Part shown: positions 793 through 34,917 of the stretch, piece by piece
Layout of the letters: each line of letters begins with the position of its first letter
How positions within the stretch are numbered: position 1 is the first letter of the stretch
Source of the DNA: Candidatus Nitrosotalea okcheonensis
GTDB lineage: Archaea > Thermoproteota > Nitrososphaeria > Nitrososphaerales > Nitrosopumilaceae
Direction: 5' to 3'
Assembly: GCF_900177045.1 (NCBI RefSeq)
Contig: NZ_LT841358.1
Coordinates: 141,073 to 205,072 of the forward strand
DNA: 64,000 nt
Made by a program: the position numbers and the translations under genes
Notes under the pieces: generated by a model
What the model was told of the DNA's origin: nothing
The model's database searches: none
Seen by the model: only the letters and a program-made list of their open reading frames with translations

Positions 793-946
793 AATTCTTG
801 AGAGGAGGCTTTCTGTGTAATGCTGAGAAGAAACAGGAGAAAACTATCACAAATATCCTTTCTCCAATTTCTTGATATCAAAAAACGAATCCATGTCTGA
901 ACATTGATCACTTTTAACTCTGGGCAATTGAATTAAAAAAAAGCAA

Positions 947-1050
947 CTCTATGCTTATTTGTAAACAATAAACATAGAGGGAGCGATAATGTTGTTTAGC
1001 CGATTAAGTTGGGCTAGGGCCTGTAATCGCTCGGGAGTAATCTCTGACAC
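947..1050 (+). ncRNA. Candidate structured RNA, copy 1 of a two-member family
   Basis: Two adjacent hairpins are visible. The first pairs CTCTATG (947-953) with CATAGAG (973-979) and continues after one mismatch as TTATT/AATAA around a 7-base loop. The second pairs GAGCGAT (981-987) with ATCGCTC (1026-1032) and encloses TAGCC/GGCTA (997-1001/1012-1016). The blocks GGGAG..AT.AAYGTWGTT, AAGWTGGG and ATCTCTGA recur in the same order near 34.66-34.73 kb with different paired bases. The stretch GGGCTAG...CCTGTAAT faintly recalls the 5' domain of archaeal SRP RNA, but no S domain follows. Strand and function are inferred. Confidence 0.4.
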
Positions 1051-1222
1051 TTGATTTTCGTGTATGACGTAATCAGTTTTAAAGATTAAATCCAAATTAT
1101 TCTAGTGATTGATCAATTATAATTTAACAACTTTTGATGATGAATCTGGCGATATCTATGATACCTATAGTGTCTATGGTAAATAGATATTGCTAAATTA
1201 CTGATTTAATCTTAGATTGACT
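1051..1222. other. AT-rich intergenic stretch
   Basis: This lies between the structured RNA candidate and the small coding frame at 1223. I see no open frame with coding character. It could be leader sequence of the downstream gene if transcription begins at the RNA element. Confidence 0.3.
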
Positions 1223-2787: not shown

Positions 2788-3105
2788 ATTCTTTAGAGGG
2801 ATCCATTACTTTCTAATATTATCTCCATTGTGAAATTTCTCTAAATCGCTTTCTCCAGTCTTGATGTAACTAGATGTATCCATTATGATACACTGCCCGC
2901 ATCACATGATAGGAAATGTCAAATTTAAAATCCTTGAAGAATGAAAGGATGCATTTTGTTATCCGAGTCTTACTTGTTTCTCAAATTGAATAATGAACGC
3001 AGTAATTATGATAAAACTTAAAAACACCATGTGCTACATCTAAAAGAGGCTATGACATTAGCCTTGGAATAAACTCCTAAACTGCCCAAGAATGGCGCTG
3101 ATAAT
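2788..3105. other. Intergenic stretch, no gene seen
   Basis: About 320 bases of AT-rich sequence separate the zinc-ribbon gene from the surface protein at 3138. I see no frame with coding character. It must hold the promoter of the 3138 gene; CTTAAAAAC around 3019 is a TATA-like element, which would give a leader of about 100 bases containing the inverted repeat at 3106. Confidence 0.4.
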
Positions 3106-3135
3106 GTCTACCTAATGGCAATTAAATAGGTAGAC
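3106..3135 (+). promoter_or_regulatory. Perfect 9-bp inverted repeat just before a start codon
   Basis: GTCTACCTA (3106-3114) and TAGGTAGAC (3127-3135) are perfect complements separated by 12 bases. The ATG of the next gene begins at 3138. It may be an operator for a dimeric repressor or a hairpin in the leader that masks the start. Confidence 0.5.
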
Positions 3136-3137
3136 AA

Positions 3138-4307
3138 ATGAACACAAAAAAACAAAAATTGGGTCGGTACAAAAATCTGACATATTTACTAATACTTGCA
3201 ATTGTCATAGTTACAGGATTCATATCTCCTGCCAATGCAGTAGATTTTGTTGCACAACTTAGTACTACATCACATACCGCAAAACCGACATTTCAATTTG
3301 AAAGAACATACGTGATTGATTATTCACAAGGTGGAGAAATCAAGAACATGCTAAATGGTAAAAATATTACCATGACATTTCATGTTAACCCATCTGATCC
3401 AATGAAAACATCTCTTATCAGGAATCTTGATTCTGAAATTATTGGAAACCTTAAGAGTGCTTCAAATATTACGGATGTAGACATTACATATGAAGCGACA
3501 CTGTATCCAAGTGACAGTCAAGCACGTATAGATTACAAGATAATATTTGTTCCAACAATATCAAACTATGTGTTAAGGCCCGCAACTAGTGATAGTGCTG
3601 CCATACTTGATACTCAGTGGAGAGGATTGACAGTACAAGATCCTGTGTTGATTAATATTCCAAATTATGGACCGTTTGACATAAACTCGCCTATCGATTT
3701 TATCAAAAAACAGCTTCCAGATCTTTATGACAAACTGAAAGGGTCAAATGCGGAAAACCTATTTGAGATTCCATTGATGTCGTCAAATGATCTAATGAGT
3801 GATCCTATATCAAAATGGCAACACTTGTTTGATCCTGCATATACAATTGTTGATTCAAGTAATCTTGGATATCGTGGACAAAAAGTAGTTGTCTCTACAT
3901 ACGCAACTGGTGAGAGCAACATAAGTGAGGGAACCATGTATCCAATTGTCAAAAATTCAGATTTAAAATCAGATGTTGATTATCCAGTAAGCTATACTGA
4001 GAGAGCAAGCTCTGCTAGTATACAAATTGATGGCTATGTGGCAGTGACAAACATAGGCGGTATTGAATACTTTGGTGCTAGCCCTCAACCACCGCAAGGT
4101 AGTGGAATATCGTCTACAGGAAACTATTCTGCACAAGTGATCTATTCTATGACGGCATTTGCCGTTGTAATAGCTGTAGGCATATTTTGGTGGAGCAGCC
4201 GAGTGTCAAAGAGTGCAATGAAAAGAGGAAAAGATACAAGCCCGCCTCCAACATTCCAATATGAAACTCGAAAACATTGGGCAGACAGATTTGAGAATGA
4301 CAAATGA
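3138..4307 (+). CDS. Membrane-anchored extracytoplasmic protein, unknown function
   Basis: The 389-residue protein starts with a basic stretch and a signal sequence ending near SPANA-VDF (residue about 34). A long extracytoplasmic region with beta-rich character and many N-x-S/T sites follows. Near the C-terminus are a Pro/Gly/Ser linker (PQPPQGSG), a membrane helix at about 338-357 (IYSMTAFAVVIAVGIFWW), and a roughly 30-residue basic cytoplasmic tail. This is a type I topology with an envelope-exposed body. No enzyme motif is visible. The gene is preceded by the inverted repeat at 3106-3135 and is followed after 35 bases by crcB. Confidence 0.7.
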   Translation: MNTKKQKLGRYKNLTYLLILAIVIVTGFISPANAVDFVAQLSTTSHTAKPTFQFERTYVIDYSQGGEIKNMLNGKNITMTFHVNPSDPMKTSLIRNLDSEIIGNLKSASNITDVDITYEATLYPSDSQARIDYKIIFVPTISNYVLRPATSDSAAILDTQWRGLTVQDPVLINIPNYGPFDINSPIDFIKKQLPDLYDKLKGSNAENLFEIPLMSSNDLMSDPISKWQHLFDPAYTIVDSSNLGYRGQKVVVSTYATGESNISEGTMYPIVKNSDLKSDVDYPVSYTERASSASIQIDGYVAVTNIGGIEYFGASPQPPQGSGISSTGNYSAQVIYSMTAFAVVIAVGIFWWSSRVSKSAMKRGKDTSPPPTFQYETRKHWADRFENDK

Positions 4308-34485: not shown

Positions 34486-34645
34486 AGTTAGACTCGTCCG
34501 GTACTATTGATAAACAATGCGTAGAATTTTTTTATGAAATTGTCCAAATACTGTCCAAAACACGAAAAAATATTTGTAATATTACCTTAAACAGAAACCA
34601 CATATGTACACCAAGTTGTACCGTTGTCACATTTGTGTCAAAAAC
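34486..34645. other. Promoter region of the minus-strand basic-protein gene
   Basis: AT-rich, no coding frame. GTAATATTACC near 34574-34584 is a short palindrome-like element. It lies between the minus-strand gene and the RNA candidate. Confidence 0.3.
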
Positions 34646-34727
34646 AATCTCAACGATCGAAAGGGAGATTAACGTAGTTGATTATTCAAGATGGGACAAC
34701 GCTGGAGCCATATCTCCTATCTCTGAT
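34646..34727 (+). ncRNA. Candidate structured RNA, copy 2 of a two-member family
   Basis: GGGAGAT (34663-34669) pairs with ATCTCCT (34712-34718), enclosing GTTG (34677-34680) and CAAC (34697-34700). The primary blocks GGGAG.AT.AAYGTWGTT, AAGWTGGG and ATCTCTGA match the copy at 947-1050, while both stems differ in sequence and stay paired. An alternative pairing of AATCTC (34646-34651) with GAGATT (34665-34670) competes with the outer stem, a switch-like arrangement. It lies about 190 bases before ATG 34918, much as copy 1 lies before the gene at 1223. Confidence 0.4.
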
Positions 34728-34917
34728 TAATTATAACGTAAACACATTTTGAATTAATTGGAAAATTCTTTCAAATATTGTATTGGGTATGGTACTGATA
34801 AAGGTCCTTAATTCTATGTAACTGAGATTGTAATATTTTTATCACACAAGGCTTCTGCACTTACAATCCTAAACCTTTTAGTCAAATCTGTAAACAATTA
34901 CCCTTATTTTTAATGGA
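34728..34917. other. AT-rich leader or promoter region
   Basis: No coding frame is seen. Several TATA-like strings (TTTTTATC, CCTTATTTTTAATGG) lie before ATG 34918, the closest of them only about ten bases away. Confidence 0.3.

What the first reader, a model, noticed from the sequence alone, without database searches (positions are those of the whole stretch)
947..1050. First copy of a two-member structured RNA family
Two stacked hairpins occur here, and the blocks GGGAG..AT.AAYGTWGTT, AAGWTGGG and ATCTCTGA recur in the same order at 34.66-34.73 kb. Outer stems are GAGCGAT/ATCGCTC here and GGGAGAT/ATCTCCT there; inner stems are TAGCC/GGCTA here and GTTG/CAAC there, so pairing is kept while bases change. 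A stretch also faintly resembles the 5' domain of SRP RNA.
Basis: partly seen in the sequence, partly recalled or inferred. Interest (0 to 1): 0.65.

Follow-up and report, generated by a model that had tools for sequence, protein, structure and literature searches.

The report
Archaeal RNA complementary to 23S rRNA
A short, strongly conserved RNA gene of acid-soil ammonia-oxidising archaea (Nitrosotalea) reads on the opposite strand to the one first proposed, and its first 40 bases are complementary to helix 69 of the large ribosomal RNA, the contact between the two ribosome halves, which suggests that it acts on the ribosome itself.

Summary
The structure at 947-1050 is real, but its strand and family were misread. 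It is a stand-alone RNA gene of about 112-118 nt on the MINUS strand (about 1053 to 935). It has an invariant TATA-like promoter, a conserved body, a hairpin and a T-run, after which conservation stops. It occurs in 28 Nitrosotalea-group genomes (25 of the window's genus, 3 of a related genus), in single copy, and in no other Nitrosopumilaceae of 250 searched. It diverges far less than rpoB third positions. Rfam does not know it.

The 34.66-kb "second copy" is not a member. The SRP idea is refuted, because SRP RNA is a separate gene.

The unexpected result is that the RNA's 5' 40 nt are antisense to 23S rRNA helices 68-69 (E. coli 1883-1923). The match scores 50, against at most 35 in 1000 shuffles, and all 27 aligned homologues match the same site. 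The exposed junction of the RNA is the part that would pair with H69, and its most variable base is the one bulged out of that duplex. No C/D or H/ACA guide features are present.

Best explanation: an antisense RNA that masks H68-H69 of (pre-)23S, either as an assembly chaperone or a ribosome silencer. Expression and function are untested.

The parts
935..1053 (-). RNA gene (about 112-118 nt), 5' end near 1053, 3' end in the T-run at 942-935
   Evidence: 27-genome alignment; conservation 0.87-0.97 inside and 0.4 beyond the T-run; CM hit 138 bits
1078..1084 (-). TATA-like box CTTTAAA, invariant in 27 genomes, 32-35 nt before GTGTC
1085..1128 (-). Conserved upstream promoter region (GTTAAATTATAATTGAT ... 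GAATAATTTGGATTNAAT); its downstream part is found nowhere else in the genome
   Evidence: conservation mostly 0.85-0.94; unique in own genome at up to 3 mismatches
1010..1051 (-). 23S-antisense block: complementary to 23S H68 3' strand and H69 (E. coli 1883-1923)
1033..1045 (-). Junction J1/2 (AGAGNUUACYYCC), unpaired in the RNA's own fold, complementary to the H69 5' strand and loop; N = bulged, variable base
943..1050 (-). P1: GUGU (1050-1047) with 946-943 (ACAC in most genomes); closes the molecule; weak in the window species
   Evidence: 95% of cells paired, 16 G-U cells
981..1032 (-). P2: GAGCGAU (1032-1026) with AUCGCUC (987-981); inner helix UAGCC (1016-1012) with GGCUA (1001-997)
   Evidence: 98% and 96% of cells paired
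947..979 (-). P3 hairpin CUCUAUG...CAUAGAG
   Evidence: 100% of cells paired, one compensatory U-A to C-G pair
935..942 (-). T-run terminator (U8)
   Evidence: at least 6 T in all 27 genomes; conservation collapses beyond

Best explanation
The element is an independent minus-strand gene for a small structured non-coding RNA of the Nitrosotalea group. Free, the RNA folds into a closing stem P1, a two-part hairpin P2 and a 3' hairpin P3, leaving a 13-nt junction exposed. That junction, with the neighbouring 5' strands of P1 and P2, is antisense to helices 68-69 of 23S rRNA. Proposed mechanism: the exposed junction nucleates pairing with H69 (loop and 5' strand), then P1 and P2 open and the duplex extends into H68, masking the H68-H69 region of (pre-)23S. 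The likeliest use is a transient antisense chaperone or timer of 50S assembly, with the RNA released by refolding into P1 and P2. The nearest alternative is silencing of free 50S by blocking intersubunit bridge B2a. Shown: gene anatomy, strand, conservation, distribution, and complementarity far beyond chance. Inferred: transcription, pairing in the cell, and the biological outcome.
For: Gene: invariant CTTTAAA at a near-fixed distance, an invariant T-run after P3, and a sharp conservation edge. Strand: 37 G-U cells on minus against 10 that would be G-U on plus; fold z -4.4 minus, -2.7 plus. Constraint: 5-20% divergence from the window's copy where rpoB third positions differ by 10-46%. Not a leader: the nearest downstream genes are mostly convergent and neighbours vary. 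Single copy in its genome. Antisense: local score 50, against a best of 35 in 1000 dinucleotide shuffles and 28 over 42 3-kb pieces of window DNA; all 27 homologues hit the same rRNA span; duplex -37 to -59 kcal/mol; co-fold gain -24.2, against a shuffled mean of -4.9 and best of -16.8; the 3' half shows no match. J1/2 is unpaired in the RNA's own fold yet 9 of 13 columns are invariant, and its most variable column (13) is the base bulged from the rRNA duplex. Site mapped to E. coli 1883-1923. The gene lies 2.3-3.4 kb downstream of and convergent to 23S in G013, G062, G001, G002 and G032.
Against: No expression data. The rRNA target is identical in the species checked, so intermolecular covariation could not be tested. 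Three sequences (L024, L027, L028) carry a C-A mismatch in the duplex. Observed substitutions harm the pairing less than random ones only at p = 0.06. Changes in the inner P2 helix break pairs on the minus strand. A partial inverted copy of 23S near the rRNA operon could explain the origin of the complementarity without its use. At least six genomes of the same genus that are 95% or more complete lack the gene, so it is probably dispensable.
Confidence: 0.6

Rival explanations
1. The RNA is a real, conserved non-coding RNA, but the 23S complementarity is only a relic of its origin as an inverted partial copy of 23S next to the rRNA operon. It now acts otherwise, as a trans-acting regulator of mRNAs or a protein-binding RNA.
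For: The gene lies near the rRNA operon in several genomes. Parts with no rRNA match (apical loop, P2 3' strand, P3 stem) are also conserved. The selection test on the pairing is only p = 0.06.
Against: The unpaired junction is conserved except mainly at bulged or wobble-tolerant positions. Complementarity to one site is kept in all 27 species over large rpoB distances. No second target stands out: the complement of the junction has 9+6 matches in the genome at up to 3 mismatches, itself included, against 2+5 for the reversed control.
Confidence: 0.22
2. It acts on mature ribosomes: the RNA accumulates in starvation or acid stress, anneals to H69 of free 50S and blocks 30S joining (a hibernation antisense RNA). 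This is a variant of the best explanation and shares its probability.
For: The seed J1/2 is complementary to H69, including its loop. [quoted passage not shown]
Against: The duplex continues into H68, which is structured in mature 50S, so strand invasion would be costly. No stress-expression data.
Confidence: 0.25
3. A modification guide (degenerate C/D or H/ACA) for the known H69 modifications.
For: H69 carries universally conserved pseudouridines and, in haloarchaea, a 2'-O-methyl G (PMC2584109).
Against: No box C on either strand and no C+D combination in any of 27 sequences; no ANA box after P2; the ACA after P3 is missing in the window species and some others, and P3 has no guide pocket. 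Pairing is one long, nearly continuous duplex, not 10-12 nt beside a D box or a split pocket.
Confidence: 0.05
4. A helper of the group I intron at LSU/1931, holding the upstream exon open for splicing.
For: The window's own 23S has an insert that matches the group I intron family (RF00028, 43.5 bits against a curated cut-off of 50, E 1e-9), starting about 9 nt 3' of the paired region; G016 also has an insert there.
Against: G035, G013 and G062 have the RNA but no insert at that site.
Confidence: 0.04
5. A leaderless mRNA for a 31-aa peptide (GTG start at 1050, minus strand; VSEITPERLQALAQLNRLNNIIAPSMFIVYK).
For: The frame is open for about 30 codons in most genomes and starts within a few nt of the likely transcription start.
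Against: Frame shifts in L024, L026 and L029; variable columns by codon position 16/9/11, so third positions are not the freest; pN/pS 0.73; no Pfam match.
Confidence: 0.04

Closest known systems
Trans-encoded antisense small RNAs of archaea and bacteria
   Same: Own promoter and T-run terminator, about 110 nt, a seed kept unpaired in a structured molecule, trans complementarity
   Different: The apparent target is 23S rRNA, not an mRNA, and the complementarity runs over about 40 nt
snoRNA-type rRNA chaperones (U3, U8, U14; own knowledge)
   Same: Would pair with (pre-)rRNA in a functionally central region
   Different: No C/D or H/ACA boxes; an archaeal stand-alone RNA restricted to one lineage
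Archaeal C/D and H/ACA guide RNAs
   Same: The target region H69 is known to be modified in archaea
   Different: Defining boxes absent; pairing geometry wrong
   Same: Structured archaeal RNA
   Different: No model match; the real SRP RNA gene is elsewhere in the genome

Membership tests
Archaeal SRP RNA | Match to RF01857 | tested here: not met
   No hit at the element; SRP gene found at G000:C1:1289167
Any Rfam 15 family | Score above the family's cut-off | tested here: not met
   No match at or above any cut-off; nothing relevant among E up to 5 in the window copy or E up to 1 in five diverged homologues' loci
C/D box guide RNA | Box C (RUGAUGA) and box D (CUGA) | tested here: not met
   0 of 27 have box C on either strand
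H/ACA guide RNA | ANA box 3' of a pocket hairpin | tested here: not met
   None after P2; ACA after P3 in most species but not in the window, and P3 has no pocket
H/ACA guide RNA | K-turn or K-loop, binding by Cbf5 and L7Ae | not tested
   No motif scan made; none recognised by eye; no binding data
Cis-acting leader or riboswitch | Lies at the 5' end of a co-directional gene | tested here: not met
   Terminator follows at once; nearest downstream genes mostly convergent; neighbours vary
Stand-alone small RNA gene | Own promoter, conserved body, terminator, single transcription unit | tested here: met
   (sequence level only)
Stand-alone small RNA gene | Transcript observed | not testable with these tools
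   No RNA-seq available
rRNA antisense or chaperone RNA | Complementarity to rRNA beyond chance, conserved | tested here: met
rRNA antisense or chaperone RNA | Intermolecular covariation with the target | tested here: inconclusive
   Target invariant in G000, G035, G013, G062 and G016
Family with 34.66 kb | Matches the covariance model of the first copy | tested here: not met
   6.7 bits against 138

The most novel reading that the evidence does not exclude
A dedicated, box-less antisense RNA that controls assembly or activity of the large ribosomal subunit by masking H69, the universal intersubunit bridge, evolved in one lineage of acidophilic ammonia-oxidising archaea.
Probability: 0.35. Interest if true: 0.85.

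Novelty: new variant of a known kind. Interest (0 to 1): 0.68.

Why it matters
Helix 69 contacts tRNAs and forms the bridge between the two ribosomal subunits in all life. A conserved cellular RNA aimed at it would be a new way to control ribosome assembly or dormancy, in organisms that are prominent nitrifiers of acid soils and whose regulatory RNAs appear little studied. The claim can be tested directly with ordinary RNA-seq, gradients and RNA-RNA crosslinking on existing Nitrosotalea cultures.

Tried and rejected
Second copy at 34.66 kb: rejected. SRP RNA and any Rfam family: rejected. Plus-strand RNA: rejected on promoter, T-run and G-U pattern, although the inner P2 helix taken alone leans the other way. 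Peptide: disfavoured. Weak model hits in G026, G057 and G007 (E 0.09-0.9): not accepted; the G026 stretch was read and looks like unrelated, partly coding sequence, the other two were not inspected. mRNA targets: the complement of the junction gave no clear excess in the genome. 16S complementarity: none beyond shuffles. Viral contigs: no match. Shared promoter motif with SRP RNA: not seen, and the promoter motif is unique in the genome. Intermolecular covariation: sought by retrieving 23S of G016, where the RNA has a changed junction, but the target is identical. Literature: no description of such an RNA found in the held library; the N. devanaterra genome paper counts seven unnamed small RNA genes, which may or may not include it.

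Full report
What is there. The window lies in a complete 1.97-Mb genome of the Nitrosotalea group: the homologues carried by named records are Ca. Nitrosotalea devanaterra, bavarica, sp. TS, sp. FS and Nitrosotalea MAGs. Around 935-1140 a 27-genome alignment shows a typical small-RNA gene footprint on the MINUS strand. There is a conserved upstream region (1128-1085), an invariant CTTTAAA at 1084-1078, and a variable spacer. A highly conserved body then starts about 1053 and ends in a hairpin and a T-run at 942-935, present in all genomes, and conservation drops to 0.4 immediately beyond. The downstream part of the upstream element is unique in the genome at up to 3 mismatches.

Strand. Promoter and T-run exist only for the minus strand. 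Folding relative to shuffled sequence is stronger on minus (z -4.4) than on plus (z -2.7). Changes in P1 and P3 give G-U pairs on minus (37 cells in the whole structure) far more often than they would on plus (10 cells). The inner P2 helix taken alone points the other way, which I leave as a weak counter-sign.

Structure. P1 GUGU/ACAC, P2 GAGCGAU/AUCGCUC with inner UAGCC/GGCUA, and P3 CUCUAUG/CAUAGAG pair in 98% of cells, against 28-48% when the partners are slid. True covariation is almost absent (one compensatory pair) because the RNA is too conserved, so structure is supported mainly by G-U tolerance and the slid control.

Constraint and distribution. The element differs from the window's copy by 5-20% where rpoB third positions differ by 10-46%. 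The covariance model finds it in 28 genomes (25 of the window's genus, 3 of one other genus) and in no other of 250 Nitrosopumilaceae; one further hit, in G026 at 21.6 bits, was not accepted. It is single-copy in its genome. On an rpoB tree its carriers are spread over the clade, and several lineages lack it, so loss or assembly gaps are likely. Neighbouring genes vary between subclades and the nearest downstream genes are mostly convergent, so it is not a leader.

The second copy. The 34.66-kb region is not a member: rank 31 of 2547 by similarity, 6.7 bits with the model, and a single relative at 75% that does not keep the named blocks. It has no unusual similarity to 23S either.

The unexpected part. 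A duplex scan against own rRNAs gave -25.8 kcal/mol for the RNA's junction with 23S, matched by at most 1 of 40 shuffles in either genome tested. The full alignment is: RNA 5'-AG-U-GUCAGAG-(N)-UUACUCCCG-(A)-GCG-A-UURCAGGCCCU-AGC-3' against 23S 5'-GAGCUAAGGGCCUGUAAACGCCGGGAGUAACUCUGACUCU-3'. The score is 50; 1000 dinucleotide shuffles reach at most 35, and 42 pieces of 3 kb from the window at most 28. All 27 homologues have their best match to 23S at this site, with duplex energies of -37 to -59 kcal/mol. Co-folding with a 115-nt 23S fragment gains 24 kcal/mol over the separate folds, against a mean of 5 for shuffled RNA. By comparison with an E. coli 23S gene the site is E. coli 1883-1923, that is, the 3' strand of H68 and H69 (helix boundaries from own knowledge). 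The 3' half of the RNA has no rRNA match.

Why this may be functional. The 13-nt junction is unpaired in the RNA's own fold yet 9 of 13 columns are invariant. Its most variable column (A/C/U) is the base bulged out of the rRNA duplex, and the other common changes (C19 to U, C21 to U, A31 to G) keep G-U pairing with the rRNA. L029 shifts its register (GA to AG) and keeps pairing. A formal test of all single changes is only suggestive (p = 0.06), and U18 to C in three sequences makes a mismatch. The target is identical in G000, G035, G013, G062 and G016, so compensatory changes cannot be expected there.

Where it came from. In G013, G062, G001, G002 and G032 the gene lies 2.3-3.4 kb downstream of and convergent to the 23S gene. 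In N. devanaterra it is about 11 kb away, and in the window's genome about 850 kb. An inverted partial copy of 23S is a plausible origin (inference).

Mechanism (inferred). [quoted passage not shown] The exposed junction can nucleate on H69, after which opening of P1 and P2 would let the duplex extend. I favour a transient chaperone or timer of 50S assembly, because the duplex extends into H68, and hold silencing of free 50S as the nearest alternative. Guide RNA classes fail on defining boxes. The group I intron-like insert at LSU/1931 in the window's own 23S (RF00028 at 43.5 bits, below the curated 50 but E 1e-9) is not required, because three carriers of the RNA have no insert there.

Limits. 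No transcript data, no binding data, no mutants; the literature search covers an open-access library only.

Noticed in passing
3039-3117 (+): Fluoride riboswitch (RF01734, 34.7 bits, just above the curated cut-off) 21 nt upstream of a 389-aa ORF (3138-4307) without a confident Pfam family: an unusual partner for a fluoride riboswitch.
   Followed up: partly
L175 2462-3152 (own 23S rRNA gene, outside the window): Group I intron-like insert of 691 bp at LSU/1931 with an ORF resembling a LAGLIDADG endonuclease by eye; G016 has a shorter insert at the same place.
   Followed up: partly
1085-1128 (-): The region upstream of the TATA box is conserved far more than a core promoter needs, suggesting a dedicated regulator of this RNA.
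   Followed up: partly
34500-34780: Intergenic stretch with a run of more than 50 nearly identical bases in one relative (G003, L034) but no match in the other relatives searched.
   Followed up: no
L103, relative +151 to +8470 from the element (N. devanaterra): A 2772-aa ORF lies directly convergent to the RNA gene in N. devanaterra and may have separated it from the rRNA operon.
   Followed up: no
955-1050 (-): A GTG-started frame of 31 codons runs through the RNA in most genomes; probably chance, but a dual-function RNA is not excluded.
   Followed up: partly
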